Assembly (NCBI RefSeq): GCF_006376685.1
Contig: NZ_VEWL01000009.1
Span: 1 to 64,000 of the forward strand
DNA: 64,000 bases
Origin: Ochrobactrum teleogrylli
GTDB taxonomy: Bacteria; Pseudomonadota; Alphaproteobacteria; Rhizobiales; Rhizobiaceae
Direction of reading: 5' to 3'
In this document: piece by piece, positions 40,334 to 64,000 of the stretch
How the letters are laid out: every line of letters begins with the position of its first letter
Numbering within the stretch: the first letter of the stretch is position 1
Made by a program: the position numbers and the translations under genes
Notes under the pieces: model-generated
The model's database searches: none
What the model saw: the letters and a program-made list of their open reading frames with translations, nothing else
What the model was told of the DNA's origin: nothing

Positions 40334-41386
40334 ATGCATCAGCGCGTGAACAAGGTTGTCCAGCAATGGTCGGTGAGCTGGCGCGATGCGTTGATTGCTT
40401 CCATTGGTGGGGCGGTGGCGTGGCTGATCTGCCAGTGGCTTCTCGGTCAGCCAAGGCCGGTCTTCGCCATGGTCACGGCGGTGATCTGCCTTGCGCCCAA
40501 CCTGCCAAACCACGGCAAGCAGGCCATTGGCGTCATGGTCGGCGTGACGACAGGGGTAGCCGCGGGAGAATTGTCGCTGCTGCTGCCGGAAACCGTTCTC
40601 GTCGCGCATATGGCGGTGGTGACCTTCATCGCCATGGTGCTGGCAACCTCGTTCGGCATGGCGCCGGCAATTGCCATCCAATCCGGTGTTTCGGCCATTC
40701 TGGTGCTCGCCATGGGGCCGCAGGTGGCGGGTGTGACGCGCCTGATCGACGTTCTGGTGGGCGCAGGTGTCGGGCTTCTGTTCAGCCAGATCTTGCTGAC
40801 ACCGGACCCGGCGCGGCTGATCGACCGGGCGGCGCGGGGCCTGCTGGACCGGCTGGCCAACGGGTTGAAACAGGCGGCTATCGCGCTCGACAAGGAGGAC
40901 GCGGCACGCGCCCAAAACGCAATCAACCAGTTCACCTCCGCGCATCGCGCGGTAATCGCGTTGGGTGACGGCATTGCGCTTGCGCGCAGCAATGCGCGCT
41001 GGTCGTTGCGCGGGCGGCTGGCGGCGCGCGAAGTGACAGAAATGGCCGGGCGTTATGACCGTCGCGGCATTCGTCTTTATGCTTCAGCGCTCTTGTTTGG
41101 CGAAGCGCTGGGTAATGCGTTGCGCAAGAAGGAAGCGCCTCCGCCGCCATGGGTTAGCGAGGCGTTGCAGATCATCATCGCCAATTGTTCGCTGGATGAA
41201 GGCGTGGCGCCGCAGCGCATTCCGCCCGTGCCGAAGGAAATTCCCTTCGGCTGGCGCGATTGCGTGCACCGGCTGGAATCGGTGCAGGATACGCTGCTGC
41301 ACTTCCTCCATGCCGGGGTTCCGGACAGCGTGCCGGTCGGGCCAAAGGACACGAAGCGCGTCCTGAGCGATGAAGCTGCGCGTTAG
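40334..41386 (+). CDS. FUSC-family membrane protein
   Basis: A 350-aa protein with about five or six membrane helices in the first half (ALIASIGGAVAWLICQWL; VMVGVTTGVAAGELSLLL) and a soluble helical second half. It fits the FUSC/aromatic acid exporter family. It starts at ATG 40334 with GGAG upstream. The exported substrate cannot be assigned. It sits 60 bases after the ArsC-like gene and may be in its operon. Confidence 0.78.
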   Translation: MHQRVNKVVQQWSVSWRDALIASIGGAVAWLICQWLLGQPRPVFAMVTAVICLAPNLPNHGKQAIGVMVGVTTGVAAGELSLLLPETVLVAHMAVVTFIAMVLATSFGMAPAIAIQSGVSAILVLAMGPQVAGVTRLIDVLVGAGVGLLFSQILLTPDPARLIDRAARGLLDRLANGLKQAAIALDKEDAARAQNAINQFTSAHRAVIALGDGIALARSNARWSLRGRLAAREVTEMAGRYDRRGIRLYASALLFGEALGNALRKKEAPPPPWVSEALQIIIANCSLDEGVAPQRIPPVPKEIPFGWRDCVHRLESVQDTLLHFLHAGVPDSVPVGPKDTKRVLSDEAAR

Positions 41387-41425
41387 AGCGCGTTTCTATC
41401 TGATACGGTCAGGTCGAAATGGGTA

Positions 41426-41641
41426 CTAGTCCCATGGATGTGATCGTGGTCGATTGAGTTCGATTTGGGCCCGTATCGAACCCGCTTCGGCGGCGAGTTG
41501 CCTTTGCCGTTGGATCGCTTCGTTTTCAATGGCGGAAACTCCATTGTTCCTGGGAGAAAGAGAAGAAGCATCATATGTTCTGTCCCCTGCGCATCCCGTA
41601 AGTGCACTTAACAATAATAAAATACAGATTTTTGTCTTCAT
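41426..41641 (-). CDS. Small putative lipoprotein
   Basis: A 71-aa protein starting at ATG 41641, with a short signal (MKTKICILLLLSA) and lipobox LTGC, so a lipid-anchored protein of about 55 mature residues rich in Gln, Arg and Glu (ENEAIQRQRQLAAEAGSIRAQ, likely a helix). I do not recognise it. The ribosome site is weak and the region AT-richer than the neighbours. TTG 41650 is an alternative start. Confidence 0.65.
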   Translation of the reverse strand: MKTKICILLLLSALTGCAGDRTYDASSLSPRNNGVSAIENEAIQRQRQLAAEAGSIRAQIELNRPRSHPWD

Positions 41642-51526: not shown

Positions 51527-52816
51527 GTGCGTCTTGTGTCGATACGAGCGCTGTTTGGCCGACGGAAGGCCGTTGCCGAGCCGGTATGGCATTATCCTGT
51601 CACGGGCTATTGCCCGGAGGATGGTCGCTATTATGCCGTGCGCGCAAAACCGCGTCACATCGCCCGCAAGCCGCAGCGTCTGATCCCGCTGGTGCTCACA
51701 GCCTTCGCCTATCTCTTCAATTCCAATGCGATTGCCTTTCAGGATATGGCGAGCCTCGTGCCGTCTGCCGATCTCGGCACGCATCGCTGGACGGCTTTTG
51801 TCGCCAAGGCTCCCGTTGGTTCGGTGCATCAGGCGGAAATGCCCTTTGTCGATGCAACGACCGTCACCGGCAGCATCGCCACCAACGGCATCGAAGTGCC
51901 GGGCATCGGTCGTGTAGCGCTTTCGGGCGGCAAGAAGACCGCGAAGCTTGGGCCGGATGATCCCAACCCGGACGAAAACCGCATCAACCGCGCCGACAAG
52001 ACGGGCCGTCTGGTCTCGGTGCAGCCAAAGGCGCCTGCCAAGGCGTTCACCGCGGGCAGCATGTTCGACAAGATCAGCATGATCACCCGCCCGCCGGAAA
52101 AGACCGACACCAAGATGGCCTTTTCCAGCAAGCTTGAAGGCAAGGAAATCGGCATCACCATGGCCTTCCATGCCGTGAAGCCGCCAAAGCCGCGCGCAGA
52201 AATGCCGGTGCAACTGGCCAAGCTGATCAACAATGACCAGCCGGATGTGCTGGCCCTGGGTTATGCACCGTCTGCGCCTGATTATGGAAAAACATCTCCG
52301 TTTGAGAGTATCCTGAAACCAGATCCGAGCGAGGGGCGTTTCGTCCCGCCCATCGGACAGGAAGATCACGACTGGGCGGCAACTCCGTTGCCGCCTTCGG
52401 CATTTAGCAAGGGCGAACAGAAGTGCCTCGCCGAAGCCGTTTATTACGAGGCGCGTGGCGAAACGGTCAAAGGGCAGGTGGCTGTGGCGCAGGTCGTGCT
52501 CAACCGCGTGCGCAACCCGGCCTATCCGGGCACCATTTGCGGTGTCGTCTATCAGAACCGCGATTGGCTGAATGCCTGCCAGTTCTCCTTTGCCTGCGAC
52601 GGGCAGAAACATCGTGTTACCGAGATGCCGCAATGGCGCATGGCGCAACAGGTGGCGAAGACGGTGTCGTCCGGTCAGATATGGCTGCCGGAAGTCGGCT
52701 CGGCCACGCATTATCATGCAACCTATGTGAAGCCCTTCTGGGCACCCACCATGAAGAAGCTGACCAAGATCGGCCTTCATGTGTTCTACCGCACCTATGG
52801 CGGCGGGTGGAGCTGA
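51527..52816 (+). CDS. SleB-type cell wall hydrolase
   Basis: A 429-aa protein with an N-terminal hydrophobic segment (LIPLVLTAFAYLFNSNAIA, residues about 47-66), a long low-complexity middle and a C-terminal Hydrolase_2 (SleB) domain from about residue 300 (KCLAEAVYYEARGETVKGQVAVAQVVLNRV in parts, with the catalytic Glu; YQNRDWLNACQFSFACDG). It likely cleaves peptidoglycan during growth or division. GTG 51527 is chosen because GGAG lies 7 bases upstream; GTG 51515 is an alternative. A CtrA-like box lies upstream. Confidence 0.88.
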   Translation: MRLVSIRALFGRRKAVAEPVWHYPVTGYCPEDGRYYAVRAKPRHIARKPQRLIPLVLTAFAYLFNSNAIAFQDMASLVPSADLGTHRWTAFVAKAPVGSVHQAEMPFVDATTVTGSIATNGIEVPGIGRVALSGGKKTAKLGPDDPNPDENRINRADKTGRLVSVQPKAPAKAFTAGSMFDKISMITRPPEKTDTKMAFSSKLEGKEIGITMAFHAVKPPKPRAEMPVQLAKLINNDQPDVLALGYAPSAPDYGKTSPFESILKPDPSEGRFVPPIGQEDHDWAATPLPPSAFSKGEQKCLAEAVYYEARGETVKGQVAVAQVVLNRVRNPAYPGTICGVVYQNRDWLNACQFSFACDGQKHRVTEMPQWRMAQQVAKTVSSGQIWLPEVGSATHYHATYVKPFWAPTMKKLTKIGLHVFYRTYGGGWS

Positions 52817-52818
52817 CA

Positions 52819-52905
52819 AGCATTTCCAGCAAAAGTGTGAAGCGGTTTTACGTACGGAAATGCGTAGGGAAGAAAGCATTTCCAGCAAAAGTGTGAAGCC
52901 CCTCC
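52819..52905. repeat. Paired dispersed repeats after the SleB-like gene
   Basis: A 25-bp unit, agcatttccagcaaaagtg and following bases, occurs at 52819-52843 and exactly at 52875-52899. The first copy continues to form an 8-bp stem, gcatttcc with ggaaatgc at 52857-52864. This is the form of the palindromic repeats scattered through Rhizobiales genomes. Confidence 0.8.
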
Positions 52906-53233
52906 GAGGCGGACAGCCCGCTGGACTGCCCACTGATACAGCTTTGATCTATCCGGTATCCACCGGCAAAGGCCCGCTTTAGCAGAACTTGCTGCGGCTT
53001 CGATTTCATAAAATATGCGCGAATAAATGTCTGGCGTATCGATCTGGCCCGCCTGCGTGTAACTATTCTTATTATCTAAATTAGATATATATAAATATAA
53101 TTATAGTTACTTAAAATATAACTTTATTAGAATATATAAATGAATATTTTGCAATATAGACATGATATTTTAAAATACATATAAGATAGGAATCATCGGA
53201 ATTGTTCATCATTTTTTTGATGTGTGAGGGGTA
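52906..53233. other. Very AT-rich intergenic region before the HAF autotransporter
   Basis: About 330 bases with no gene. 53065-53190 is the most AT-rich stretch of the window (runs of atat/taaaat), suggesting promoter DNA and binding by H-NS-like or MucR-type silencers. The ribosome site GAGGGG is at 53226-53231. Confidence 0.5.
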
Positions 53234-55534
53234 ATGAAAGTTTTAAATAAGCATTTGGCGTATTTGCTTATTAGCACATCGTCTTTATTAGGCGGTGCAC
53301 ATATTGCAATGGCGCAGCAGCTGGAGTTTGATCCTAACCCTGCACCCACTTTGGTTGAGGGGGCTGGCTGAGTTAGGTCTTTGGCCAGTGGCGTTTCTGC
53401 TGACGGCAGTGTGATTTTCGGGTCTGTTACGGCTACGAATGGCGGCGTTAGTGCTGCTGCAGCCTGGGATAGCAAAACTGGAAATCTGACTGTCCTTCAA
53501 AATTTGGCTGGGTTGCAAGGTCATCCGTATAGTGCACATGGTGTGTCTGCTGATGGGCAGGTTATTATTGGCAACGCGTTCGATGCTCAAAATGTGCAGC
53601 ACCCTCTGGTGTGGTTGAATGAAACGTCGACGCCAATGGGGCTTGGCGTTCTCCATGCCAATAGTACGGCCGTCGCCAATGCAATTTCGGCCGACGGAAC
53701 GACGATCGTCGGATCCTCGAACAGTAATGGTGCTTCGAACAGCGGTCATGCCGTTCTTTGGTCGCGCGCTAACGGTGCCTATTCGATCCTTGATCTTGGA
53801 ACCTTGGGTGGCCTTACTTCCTACGCGGCTGCCGTTTCCCACGATGGATCGGTGATTGTCGGTTGGGCAAATACGGGTCTGGAACAGAAACATGCTGCGG
53901 CATGGTATGACGGAGTTGCGACTGCGGTCGATCTGGAGACTTTAGGTGGCGCTACCTCCAGCGCTAGTGGCTTGTCTGCGGATGGGACGGTGATCGTCGG
54001 ATCGTCGGAACTGGCTGGTGGAGATCAACACGCGGCAGCATGGTACGGCAAAGGCAACGGCGCTACCGACCTGGGTGTTTTGAATGGTGGTACGATCTCT
54101 TTTGCTCGTGCTGTGTCCGCTGATGGCAGCGTCATCATCGGGGCGTCAACGTATTCACCAACAGCTGATACCCATGCCGTAGCGTGGTATAATCAAGGGA
54201 CAACACCGACCGATCTGGGCACTTTAGGGGGCAAGACTTCTGACGCAACTGCCGTTTCAGCGAATGGAGGGGTGATCGTTGGCCATGCGGCGAACGAGAG
54301 CAATGCAATCCACGCTGTGGTTTGGATTGGCGATGCGGCATCGCCGACGGACCTCGGGACTTTGGGGGGCAAGTATTCCTATACGAGCGGCGTCTCTGCC
54401 GATGGGACCGTGATCGCCGGTTACTCTCTGAACGATAATGGTGTTGCGCATGCCGCGCTCTGGAAACTGGTGACGGTAACGCCGCCCGATCCTGAGCCGA
54501 ACCCAACTCCGACCCCTGATCCGGATCCGAACGGGAATGGGCAGCCGACACCAGCACCCGAACCAACGCCCACGCCTGTCGGCATCGATGTCACCAATAC
54601 GGTGCAGACGGTTGCCGCACTTGCCAATGACACCTTCTCGGTCGTCGGCTCGCAAGGCGCCATTGTTGGCCGGCTGATGGGCGGCAGCAGCAGCGGTCAG
54701 GGCTTCAACGACTTCTCCGGCGCCGGTCTCGGTATGGCGCGGGGTGGCGAAAGCTGGTACGGCATCTATTCCGACGTTGGCCGCGCTGGCGACAGCAAGG
54801 ATGTGCTCGGCTGGATGACGCTCGGTCACGCCTTCACCGATAATTTCTCGGCAGGCGCAACCATTGCCCATACGTTCTGGCAGGACATGCCGGACAATTT
54901 CGACCGCACCAACAATAATCTCGGCGGCGGTATCTATGCGCAGTGGAAAGACCGCACCGAGAGCGGAACCTGGTATATGCGTGGTTCGGCTGCGATCAAT
55001 CGCTATGATGTCGAGCGGACGCGTCAGGTGCTGGGCTATACCGAACCGGGCAGCGGTGACAGCACCGTCAATGGTTGGGGCGTACAGCTGGAAGCAGGGC
55101 AGTCGTTTGATCTCGGCAACAAGGCATCGTTCGGTTATTACGGCGGCTTGAACTATACCGACCTGAAAATGGACGGCTATACCGAATCCGGCGCTCATTT
55201 CCCATTCACCTATTCGGATGTGAAGTCACAGCGCACGACGGCCTATCTCGGTCTCAATTACGGCATGGCGCTGACCGACAAGGTCAACTGGTCCGTCAAT
55301 GCCGAGATCGAGCAGGATTTGTCGCACAAGGACCCGAGCGTAATCGCCAGCGCCGACTATATCGGCTCGTTCAAGTTCGATTCCGATGCGGCGCATACAC
55401 GCGGCAGCCTGTCGACCACGGTTTCCTATGCGTTCAGCGATGCCGTCAGCATCGGCGTGACGCCTTATGTAAACCGCACGGTCAACAAGGATACGGCCTT
55501 CGGCGCGATCATCGGCCTTTCCGGCAAGTTTTAA
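53234..55534 (+). pseudogene. HAF-repeat autotransporter interrupted by an in-frame TGA
   Basis: ATG 53234 with GAGGGG opens a signal peptide (KVLNKHLAYLLISTSSLLGG, then AHIAMAQQ) and 45 residues of protein, then TGA at 53369-53371. The same frame continues without another stop to 55534. The downstream 721 codons contain eight HAF-type repeats ((G/A)xSADGxVIxG), a Pro/Thr-rich linker, and a complete autotransporter beta-barrel ending in Phe (GLSGKF). Alignment with its own repeats suggests the TGA replaces a Gly codon (GGA to TGA). An internal start at 53381 would lack an export signal. The product would be a surface adhesin if the stop were read through or reverted. Confidence 0.85.
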
Positions 55535-60069: not shown

Positions 60070-63000
60070 TCACCACCGGACTTTGAAGCCCACCGATCCT
60101 TTGACGGTGTAACTATCGCCAAGACGGTTGAGAGGCGAGTTAAGAGAGCCTTCGCCATAGATGGCATAGCGCTCGCTCGCCCAGCTATAGGTACCGCCGC
60201 CACCAATGCCGCCCCACGTGCGGCTGTTTGCGGTATCGAAGGTTACATCCGCCACCTTGAAGCGCATATCGCCGAGGAAGTCCTGGTAGAGATTGACGAT
60301 GCCGTAAATATTGGCAAGGTTGAACGTGCCGTCTGCCCCGTACCATGTGTTTCTGTAATCCGCAGAAAGGCCAAGGCGCCCCCGTAAACTGTCGCCGTCA
60401 TGCAGCGATACATCCGCGCCCCAGATATCGTTGAAGCTGTTGAAAGAAACAGACGACCACATCAGCTGTATCTGCGGGGTTAGCGACCAATGGTCGTTCA
60501 GCCCGAAACGTTTGCCTGTTTCGATGGAGAGGGCATAACCGAAGCCCTTTCGACTATCGGCAATGTCGGAGCTGGACGTGCTGGAAGACAGATCGCTATC
60601 GTACCAAGTGGCCTGTGCCTGACCATCGGCATAAAAGCCGCTGTCGCCGTACCATGTTAGCGCCGTGCCGAGTGACCATCCCTGCATTTGTATCGAGCCA
60701 TCACCATAGATCGATGAAATGTTGGAATGCGACGTGCCATATTGACCAGTGATACTGCCGACCAATTTACCCAGGTGGTTTTCGTAGAATTGTCCGTCGA
60801 CCCCGGCCTGTAATTGGAACACATTTACATTCACACTTGTTGCCGTTGCGGAGGTTGCCGGTTCGAAGTGATTATGCGCGCCTTCAATGCGTCCCCACAC
60901 CGTGCGGTTTGATGCAGCATCCTGCCTATCATAGAGCCGCGCAGAGCTAGTCTGGCTAGATTTGCGGTCCGGTTTTGCAGCGGTTTCATTGGCGTCTGAC
61001 CAATAGCGATTGCCGGTGCGCTGTTGCAACGTCGGCAGACTGTTGAGCGCCTGCATTGCTTGGATCATGCCTTCATAGACGGGAATGGCAGGGCCGTATC
61101 TTGGCCCGGGACCATCTTTCAATTCGCTGCGCAGATACCAGTCACCGTCGCCTGGCGTGCTTACGCCGCCCTTATGCAGCGTATAGGCAAAGGCACCGGC
61201 AACGATTGCTTTTTCTCCGTCCCAAGTCGTATAGTCTCCGTTCAGACTGAAATTGCCATTCGATTGGCCGACAATGTCGACGACCTTGATGCCCTCCACC
61301 GTTTGTTCTCCCGTCCCGCCACGGTTGATGAACCTGAGGCTAGTGGAGCCTGCCGTGTCCCCTAGAACTTTGAGCATATCCGTCTTTGAACCATCACCCT
61401 GCAGAACGACGTTCATCAGCAACGAACCGTCCGCGCCGATGTAATTGCCGTTTACAGTGATTGTGGTTCCCCCGGTCCCGCCGAAGCGAACAGCGCCGCT
61501 ATTCGTCAAACCAGCAACTTTCGTTTCGAAGCCGCCGAAAGCCAGCACTGCGTCTTGTCCGACCATATAAACGGCGGTTTGGCTGAAAGCTCTGCTCTGC
61601 CCTTGAAAGAGTGTACCATCGTTGACGACTGCGTTTCCTGTATAACTGTTCGGGCCAGTGAGCGTGAAGATGCCGGTGCCATTCTTGATCAGATCGCCAT
61701 TTCCCGAAATGTTTCCAGAGAAGGTCGTATCAAAATTCTGGTCGAGGGAGAGCGCAGCATTCCGAAGAGTAACATTGCCGCTACCGGTAAGCCCGCCGAC
61801 CGTGGTATTGAACCCGTCCAGATCGGCCATGGCACCGGCCTGTACATTCAGAAGTCCCGCACCAAATGCGTGATTCACAATGCCTGCACGGGCGGTTCCC
61901 TGGGCGACCGTCAGACCGCCAGTAAAGTTGTTGTCGCCTTTGAAAACGGTGACACCGCTTCCATTCTGCAGGACAGCACCGTCGCCGCTGATCTGGCCGT
62001 TAAAGTCTGTTTCGTCGGAGCGATTGAATGCGAGAGTGCCATAATCATAGATGTTACTTTCCACCACGACGTCGCCGAGAATGCTTCCCGTTGTGCCGCC
62101 ATCACCGAGTTGCACGATGCCCTGGCTGATCGTCGTGACTCCTGTATAAGTATTGTTCCCGGTCAGGATCAGTGTACCTAAGTCGGTTTTCTTGAAGCCC
62201 TGTGTCCCGCGTAGCTCGCTGGCCACGGTGGCGATCATGGAGTCACTTGCCGAGCTGCTATTACCGACGCGTATAACGGGAGTGGTGTTGGTGTCGACGA
62301 GGGTGATGTGTTGGTCGACAAGCCTGTAACCGCCAACCGAGAATACCAGTCCCTTAGTTCTGATATCGCCCGGATTATTGTCTACCTTGACAGTACCGGC
62401 ACTCCCCTCGAACATAGCGTAGTTTCCATTGTCCCAGGGACCGTTTGGCGCGCCAACCTTCGTTGTCCAGTTGTTGTTAATTGTATCCCAGGTTCCGTCA
62501 CCACCATCAACCTGGTTGTTATTATGCTTGGCAGGATCGCCGCCGTCCCAGTAGTTGAGGCTGGCTATAGTGCCACCAAAAAGCAGATCGACCTGATGTT
62601 GGGTGCTGGCATCAATTGACAATAGCTGTGGATCAATGTGGGTGGGCACCGTGCCGATCGTCATTATATTATCGGTGAGATTGCCGCCATAATCGAACAG
62701 GCGATAACGCCCCGGTCCGAAAGCGCCCAAATCCTCGATATTTAAAACGCCGTCGAGCGTAAGATCCTGTCGGACGTCGAAAAGGGCGGAAAAATTCGTT
62801 GCTGGACCAAGCTTTACATTCACATTCGTTGCATTTGAAAGCATCAGGTCGCTTCTGAATGTGAACACATAGCCCTGTTGTCCGTTGAACGTGGCGTTGT
62901 CGCTGGTTGTTGTATCGCCGACAATCGTGCCTTTGCCAGCCAGGGTGGTTCCGCTGCTGGCGGCTACAGTTCCGCCTAATACGGCATTGTCCTCGATCCA

Positions 63001-64000
63001 CAGCGAGCCGACATTCAAGAGTGTCTGACCATTGAAGCTGGAACTATCTGCGTTGAAGGACAATTGGTCTGTTCCATTTTGCTCAATCGTGCCGGATCCC
63101 GTCAAAACACTCCCGAAGACGATCTCGTTGCTTCTTTTGAAGACGAGTGTGGCGTTGGTGTCGATCTGTACGGGAAGATCAGCCAAAGCCCCGTGTACAC
63201 TATCGTTTCCTAGTTGCAGCACGCCGGTTCCTGTAATGGCCACATTGCCTAGATTGTTGACGTCACCAGTGAAAATCTGGGTGCCGCCAGCAACTTCCAG
63301 GCCACTCTTGGTTTGAATCTGTCCCGCATATTCGTCGCTTTGTGCATTTGTTATAACCAATTTGGCATTACTGCGGGGCTCGCTCTCCGCACACGTCTCC
63401 TCTCCCGGTGCCAGTTGTCCGCAATCATCAATCAAGCCCCGCCCAGAGCCGGCAAGTCCTTGAATTTTGAATATTGAACCCGTCGCCAGATTGCCAAGAT
63501 TTAACATGGCGCGAAGGTGCTGTTGGGTATCGGGCGTGCCAATCGTGATTTTGCTAGAGTTCTGGAGATCTCCGGCCAAACCCATGACAAGGCGACCTTC
63601 TATGATCGTCCACGGGGCGGCACTTTCCTGAGCATTGTCGACTGTCCACCAGCTTGCCCCGGTCTTTTCGAGACGTTCAATGCCGTAAAAAGGGGTATCG
63701 GTTACAGTTGTTGAACTGTAGGTTCCGCTAACCAGCTTGGACAGATCAAATGTGCTGGGATGGTTCTCGCTGTCCGCTCGCATGCCACCGAGTACGATTC
63801 CATTATTTGTGCCGGTAGAGTTTAGAATTCCCTCTATCGACGTATTTGGATGCAGTTCAATTGTATTGTTGTCTCCGTGCATCAAAACCAGTTGCTCACT
63901 GGCGCTCAATGGGACCCCCTGGGAATTCGGTGACTGACTGATAGATGAGGCCATGTCGTTTGTGGTCAGGGTCAGGCGGTTACCATTGCCTCGAAAATAA
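60070..64000 (-). CDS. Large autotransporter adhesin (5' end outside the window)
   Basis: At least 1310 codons. The frame has no stop up to the right edge; reading upstream of Met 63954 continues as ...YFRGNGNRLTLTTND, so that Met is internal and the gene is partial. The passenger consists of beta-helical autotransporter-associated strand repeats (LTGNNTYTGVTTISQG, FKGDNNFTGGLTVAQG, LTGPNSYTGNAVVNDG). The C-terminal 280 residues form an autotransporter barrel (RTVWGRIEGAHNHFEP start; ending GSVGFKVRW). It should be exported by type V secretion and cover or be shed from the surface, with adhesion the likely role. Confidence 0.88.
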   Translation of the reverse strand, partial: YFRGNGNRLTLTTNDMASSISQSPNSQGVPLSASEQLVLMHGDNNTIELHPNTSIEGILNSTGTNNGIVLGGMRADSENHPSTFDLSKLVSGTYSSTTVTDTPFYGIERLEKTGASWWTVDNAQESAAPWTIIEGRLVMGLAGDLQNSSKITIGTPDTQQHLRAMLNLGNLATGSIFKIQGLAGSGRGLIDDCGQLAPGEETCAESEPRSNAKLVITNAQSDEYAGQIQTKSGLEVAGGTQIFTGDVNNLGNVAITGTGVLQLGNDSVHGALADLPVQIDTNATLVFKRSNEIVFGSVLTGSGTIEQNGTDQLSFNADSSSFNGQTLLNVGSLWIEDNAVLGGTVAASSGTTLAGKGTIVGDTTTSDNATFNGQQGYVFTFRSDLMLSNATNVNVKLGPATNFSALFDVRQDLTLDGVLNIEDLGAFGPGRYRLFDYGGNLTDNIMTIGTVPTHIDPQLLSIDASTQHQVDLLFGGTIASLNYWDGGDPAKHNNNQVDGGDGTWDTINNNWTTKVGAPNGPWDNGNYAMFEGSAGTVKVDNNPGDIRTKGLVFSVGGYRLVDQHITLVDTNTTPVIRVGNSSSASDSMIATVASELRGTQGFKKTDLGTLILTGNNTYTGVTTISQGIVQLGDGGTTGSILGDVVVESNIYDYGTLAFNRSDETDFNGQISGDGAVLQNGSGVTVFKGDNNFTGGLTVAQGTARAGIVNHAFGAGLLNVQAGAMADLDGFNTTVGGLTGSGNVTLRNAALSLDQNFDTTFSGNISGNGDLIKNGTGIFTLTGPNSYTGNAVVNDGTLFQGQSRAFSQTAVYMVGQDAVLAFGGFETKVAGLTNSGAVRFGGTGGTTITVNGNYIGADGSLLMNVVLQGDGSKTDMLKVLGDTAGSTSLRFINRGGTGEQTVEGIKVVDIVGQSNGNFSLNGDYTTWDGEKAIVAGAFAYTLHKGGVSTPGDGDWYLRSELKDGPGPRYGPAIPVYEGMIQAMQALNSLPTLQQRTGNRYWSDANETAAKPDRKSSQTSSARLYDRQDAASNRTVWGRIEGAHNHFEPATSATATSVNVNVFQLQAGVDGQFYENHLGKLVGSITGQYGTSHSNISSIYGDGSIQMQGWSLGTALTWYGDSGFYADGQAQATWYDSDLSSSTSSSDIADSRKGFGYALSIETGKRFGLNDHWSLTPQIQLMWSSVSFNSFNDIWGADVSLHDGDSLRGRLGLSADYRNTWYGADGTFNLANIYGIVNLYQDFLGDMRFKVADVTFDTANSRTWGGIGGGGTYSWASERYAIYGEGSLNSPLNRLGDSYTVKGSVGFKVRW

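What the first reader, a model, noticed from the sequence alone, without database searches (positions are those of the whole stretch)
53234..55534. Autotransporter with an opal stop right after the signal-peptide region
A ribosome site, start codon, signal peptide and 45 codons are followed by TGA at 53369, then 721 further open codons in the same frame with eight repeats and an intact barrel. Apart from this stop the frame looks fully maintained, so the mutation is either very recent or the stop is read through or switched. The TGA sits where its internal repeats have Gly, one base change away.
Basis: partly seen in the sequence, partly recalled or inferred. Interest (0 to 1): 0.75.

Follow-up and report, generated by a model that had tools for sequence, protein, structure and literature searches.

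The report
Autotransporter gene broken by early stop
A surface-protein gene in a bacterium of the Brucella/Ochrobactrum genus carries a stop codon just after its export signal while the rest looks undamaged; the most likely reading is an ordinary, recently inactivated gene, with nothing found to support read-through or a switch.

Summary
ATG 53234, a signal-peptide-like start and 45 codons are followed by TGA 53369-53371, then 720 open codons in the same frame: eight HAF-type repeats, a proline-rich linker and an autotransporter barrel. Orthologs at the same locus in two species are open throughout and start at the matching ATG. No in-frame start in the 250 codons after the stop begins a signal-peptide-like segment (0 of 15). 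The second piece shows purifying selection and no second lesion, so the stop is young or an assembly error. Read-through was tested: the genome does encode selenocysteine machinery, but Rfam finds its SECIS element after the formate dehydrogenase TGA (84.1 bits) and none here. A switch was tested: no second copy of the segment, and both pieces share one frame, so slippage cannot toggle it. Broken autotransporters are documented in this genus (PMC8111173). Verdict: a recent nonsense pseudogene, or strain-level loss, of a HAF-repeat autotransporter. Low interest. Reads and same-species strains were not available.

The parts
53148..53199 (+). AT-rich upstream block, perhaps the promoter region, recognisably conserved in both orthologs
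   Evidence: aligned with L008 and L009; sigma-70-like matches in 52700-53500 are no more than shuffles give (2 found, mean 1.8)
53226..53231 (+). ribosome-binding site GAGGGG
   Evidence: GAGGG conserved in both orthologs
53234..53371 (+). first piece: 45 codons with a signal-peptide-like start, ending in TGA
   Evidence: start matched in L008 and L009
53369..53371 (+). in-frame TGA stop
   Evidence: no stop inside the frame of L008 or L009
53372..55534 (+). second piece: 720 open codons in the same frame, ending in TAA
53390..54430 (+). stretch with eight HAF-type repeats (passenger)
   Evidence: TIGR02913, 125.9 bits, 6 stretches passing on their own; eight signatures starting at 53396, 53546, 53687, 53837, 53975, 54116, 54257 and 54395; four 71-nt DNA copies
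54470..54577 (+). proline-rich linker
   Evidence: translation; start position
54836..55459 (+). autotransporter beta-domain match (the protein runs on to 55531)
   Evidence: PF03797, 78.7 bits, residues 486-693 of the ORF that starts at 53381

Best explanation
The gene is a HAF-repeat type Va autotransporter inactivated recently by a nonsense mutation 45 codons in. Its ribosome site and upstream block look intact, so translation should start, make a 45-residue peptide and stop (inferred). The second piece has no export signal of its own that I could find, so any product from re-initiation would stay in the cytoplasm and could not reach the outer membrane (inferred from how type Va autotransporters are exported). 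The gene is patchy in the genus and an open paralog remains elsewhere in the genome, so losing it is probably tolerated or strain-level (inferred).
For: Stop and frames. Syntenic orthologs in Ochrobactrum sp. RH2CCR150 and Brucella haematophila, open for 759 and 763 codons with the matching start. Purifying selection on the second piece and no further lesion. No signal-like start in its first 250 codons (0 of 15 candidates). Empty site between hydrolase and atp genes in 32 of 35 genus genomes: match coordinates, recounted. Open paralog of 794 codons at G000:C14. Other HAF copies in the genus are broken independently (an in-frame TAA in the barrel of the G016 copy, a frame change in one G028 copy), so 3 of 22 copies counting this one. 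The copies were grouped by hand from the rows, one contig fragment (G023:C295) was dropped, and for copies not re-read only the open-frame and stop columns were used. The bma autotransporters of Brucella are often pseudogenes, including by stops near the N-terminus: PMC8111173 (abstract, passages and section 19).
Against: The absence of a second lesion and the near-normal dN/dS would also fit an assembly or sequencing error, or a gene still in use in other cells or strains. The window is one genome; no reads and no second strain of the species were available.
Confidence: 0.75

Rival explanations
1. A base-calling or assembly error in a 43-contig draft; the gene is in fact intact.
For: One isolated lesion in an otherwise clean frame.
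Against: Seven neighbouring genes compared with L003 or L004 align without an internal stop: cell-wall hydrolase, L,D-transpeptidase, ATP synthase A chain, RNase HII, and three that I name from their order only (atpI, atpF', atpF) (family names). Rows with stops were, apart from this gene, overlapping or antisense frames that I judge non-coding. Completeness 99.99%, contamination 0.09%. All this is weak evidence about a single base.
Confidence: 0.15
2. A polymorphic or reversible on/off state kept in the population, with the stop present in some cells or strains.
For: Brucella strains differ in which bma copies are functional (PMC8111173, section 19). HAF copies occur as paralogs.
Against: No second copy of 53180-53560 in the genome to act as donor. 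Both pieces are in one frame, so slippage in the G5 tract at 53359-53363 cannot toggle the stop.
Confidence: 0.06
3. The stop is decoded, either as selenocysteine or by low-level misreading by tRNA-Trp, so that a little full-length protein is made.
For: The genome encodes tRNA-Sec (73.4 bits; anticodon TCA), SelB (433.5 bits) and a formate dehydrogenase with an internal TGA.
Against: No SECIS among the Rfam matches up to E 10 over 53300-53560, while the control formate dehydrogenase gives SECIS_3 at 84.1 bits. The 40, 45 and 50 nt from the stop fold no better than shuffles (z +0.50, +0.44, +0.46); the control gives -0.40, -2.42 and -2.12. Neither ortholog has a cysteine at or next to the aligned place. 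In the 47 tRNA matches plus tRNA-Sec, the only UCA anticodon is that of tRNA-Sec. Misreading by tRNA-Trp cannot be tested here.
Confidence: 0.03

Closest known systems
HAF-repeat autotransporters of Ochrobactrum/Brucella (orthologs L003/L009 and L004/L008)
   Same: same locus between the cell-wall hydrolase and the atp genes, same start, repeats, linker and barrel; second piece 71-76% identical in protein
   Different: the orthologs are open throughout; the window copy has an in-frame stop after codon 45
bmaA, bmaB and bmaC type Va autotransporter pseudogenes of Brucella (PMC8111173)
   Same: type Va autotransporter split by a stop, including cases where an N-terminal stop separates signal peptide and barrel (section 19)
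   Different: the bma passengers carry PATR repeats, this one HAF repeats; different locus and species

Membership tests
type Va autotransporter | C-terminal beta-domain | tested here: met
   PF03797, 78.7 bits against a cut-off of 26
type Va autotransporter | N-terminal Sec signal peptide | tested here: met
   first piece: basic start, hydrophobic core, AMA before QQ (by hydropathy and eye; no signal-peptide program was run); similar start in both orthologs
type Va autotransporter | signal peptide and barrel in one polypeptide | tested here: not met
   TGA at 53369 separates them; by the criterion of PMC8111173 (passage of its section 7) this counts as a pseudogene
HAF repeat protein (TIGR02913) | HAF repeats | tested here: met
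   125.9 bits against a cut-off of 22.65
selenoprotein | Sec decoding machinery in the genome | tested here: met
   tRNA-Sec and SelB over their cut-offs, tRNA-SeC by ARAGORN
selenoprotein | SECIS element at the TGA | tested here: not met
   no SECIS among Rfam matches up to E 10; positive control SECIS_3 84.1 bits at the formate dehydrogenase TGA; fold z +0.44 against -2.42 for the control at 45 nt
selenoprotein | Cys or Sec at the place in homologs | tested here: not met
   no Cys at or next to the aligned place in L008 or L009; in L009 a small indel makes the exact counterpart ambiguous
phase-variable (contingency) gene | reversible element such as a slipping repeat or donor cassette | tested here: not met
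   both pieces in one frame and only a G5 tract nearby; no second copy of 53180-53560 in the genome
nonsense pseudogene | stop absent from open orthologs at the same locus | tested here: met
   (two orthologs)
nonsense pseudogene | no full-length product is made | not testable with these tools
   needs proteomics

The most novel reading that the evidence does not exclude
The TGA is a kept, leaky stop that sets a very low or occasional level of a surface autotransporter. The selection seen on the second piece would then reflect continued use rather than a young mutation.
Probability: 0.04. Interest if true: 0.6.

Novelty: new member of a known kind. Interest (0 to 1): 0.15.

Why it matters
It adds one more case, with a HAF-repeat passenger instead of a PATR one, to the known pattern that this genus loses surface autotransporters by small lesions. 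It would matter more only if the stop turned out to be kept and decoded, which the evidence here does not favour.

Tried and rejected
Selenocysteine read-through: considered seriously once tRNA-Sec and SelB were found in the genome, then rejected because Rfam finds a SECIS at the genome's formate dehydrogenase TGA and none here. The folding test agrees at 45 and 50 nt but not at 40 nt, where the control too is unremarkable (z -0.40); of 71 windows along this gene the lowest z was -2.98, so z alone would be weak evidence. A first version of the fold control took the wrong strand and is not used. Suppressor tRNA: all 47 RF00005 matches listed were read by ARAGORN, and none besides tRNA-Sec has UCA; no tRNA labelled Ile was among them, so the list is incomplete.

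Gene-conversion donor: no second match to 53180-53560. Slippage switch: excluded by frame. Internal start with its own signal: 0 of 15 candidates in the first 250 codons of the second piece.

Close relatives on plasmids: none by megablast; by tblastn 23 records, all below 60% identity and none covering 80% (15 of 23 listed). Viral contigs: none confirmed. Literature: 'HAF repeat' with and without 'autotransporter' gave the same single paper, seen in the listing only; autotransporter with nonsense, readthrough and stop codon gave one paper on surface display, listing only; further searches (17 papers; 8; 8 of 25 listed). By title and start of abstract, none of those listed is on this locus. The structure prediction was not accepted at that time and was not tried again, so the fold of passenger and barrel is untested.

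Full report
What is there. On the + strand a start at ATG 53234, behind GAGGGG at 53226-53231, opens a 45-codon frame that ends in TGA 53369-53371. The same frame then stays open for 720 codons to TAA 55532-55534. The first piece looks like a signal peptide with its cleavage site (by hydropathy and eye). The second piece has eight repeat signatures (TIGR02913 HAF_rpt 125.9 bits), a proline-rich linker and a Pfam PF03797 autotransporter barrel.

Where it is. The window is part of contig C43 of a 4.76-Mb draft, 99.99% complete. Its genus in the search includes G007 and G005, whose contigs have the same lengths as the named contigs of Brucella haematophila CCUG 38531 and Ochrobactrum sp. RH2CCR150. 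That this genus includes control-listed Brucella is recalled taxonomy.

Orthologs. Both of those species carry the gene at the same place, between a cell-wall hydrolase and the atp genes (hydrolase and ATP synthase A chain named, atpI from gene order only). Both are open, for 763 and 759 codons, and start at the matching ATG with a similar signal peptide. In L008 the place of the stop aligns to a sense codon. In L009 a small indel lies there and the frame is open. The upstream AT-rich block and the GAGGG are recognisably conserved. Of 35 genomes of the genus, 16 have some match to the second piece. By the match coordinates, recounted, 32 of 35 have only 23 to 203 bases between the hydrolase match and the atp match, and 3 of 35 carry the gene there. 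Two of the four genomes most similar to the window over the atp genes (G024, G028) lack it.

Selection and age. From residue 402 of the second piece on (the barrel part), dN/dS is 0.068 and 0.092 between window and orthologs and 0.047 between the orthologs. For the passenger it is 0.41, 0.46 and 0.48. By three-point branches with bootstrap, the window branch in the barrel is 0.095 (0.057-0.152), against 0.034 (0.010-0.070) for L008 and 0.081 (0.012-0.238) for L009. Over the whole second piece it is 0.254 (0.185-0.343), against 0.259 and 0.401. So there is at most a slight excess in the barrel, and no sign of long neutral drift. Under neutrality, the chance of no other lesion in 720 codons falls to 5% at about 0.013 to 0.053 substitutions per site, depending on assumed indel rates. 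The window branch has dS of 0.36 to 0.39. The stop is therefore young relative to the species split, or is not real.

Can it still work? No start codon in the first 250 codons after the stop begins a segment with a basic N-terminus and a hydrophobic core (0 of 15). Selenocysteine decoding had to be considered, since the genome has tRNA-Sec, SelB and a formate dehydrogenase with an internal TGA, all on contig C34. At that control TGA Rfam gives SECIS_3 with 84.1 bits (gathering 63). At the window's stop the same kind of search gives no SECIS up to E 10. Folding points the same way at 45 nt (control z -2.42, 13 of 500 shuffles as good; window z +0.44, 331 of 500) and 50 nt (-2.12 and +0.46), but at 40 nt the control is unremarkable too (-0.40 and +0.50), and other windows of this gene reach z -2.98 (window also). 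All 47 listed tRNA matches were read, and only tRNA-Sec has anticodon UCA. Low-level misreading by tRNA-Trp cannot be tested here. A reversible switch lacks a mechanism: there is no second copy of the segment, and both pieces are in one frame, so slippage cannot connect them.

Comparison with what is known. Bialer et al. 2021 (PMC8111173; abstract, passages and section 19 seen) call an autotransporter locus a pseudogene when signal peptide and barrel are not in one ORF. They report such losses in bmaA, bmaB and bmaC across Brucella strains, including stops near the N-terminus (bmaB of B. melitensis 16M, bmaA of B. abortus C68). PMC2743711 (passages only) tabulates genes broken by stops or frameshifts in Brucella. 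In the HAF family itself, two further copies in the genus are broken in other ways, so 3 of 22 copies in all (grouped by hand, one fragment dropped). The window copy fits this pattern.

Verdict. The most likely reading is a recent nonsense inactivation (0.75). An assembly error is the main rival (0.15). Polymorphic or reversible states (0.06) and decoding of the stop (0.03) are not excluded but have no positive support. What cannot be shown here is the state of the reads, the state in sister strains, and whether any protein is made.

Noticed in passing
60070-63954 (-): A second autotransporter frame, 1294 aa and open, with PATR repeats, a type 1 autochaperone domain and a barrel; it resembles the bma kind (comparison from memory).
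   Followed up: partly
52818-52948: A short interspersed repeat right behind the hydrolase gene, with at least three further matches in this genome and many in the genus (capped list); resembles the Bru-RS repeats of Brucella (name recalled).
   Followed up: no
G000:C34:220919-233380: Selenocysteine genes close together: tRNA-Sec, selB and a formate dehydrogenase with an in-frame TGA and a SECIS_3 element.
   Followed up: partly
L011 (G016:C3) and L026 (G028:C30): Two other HAF autotransporter copies in the genus are broken: an in-frame TAA in the barrel in one, a change of frame in the other.
   Followed up: partly
53372-55531: Third-position GC is 0.48-0.56 over 53372-54451 (passenger) and 0.69-0.77 from 54452 on (linker and barrel), as if the two parts had different histories.
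   Followed up: no
41357-41443: ARAGORN reports a tRNA of unknown type, but Rfam has no match at its gathering scores anywhere in the window; probably a false positive.
   Followed up: yes
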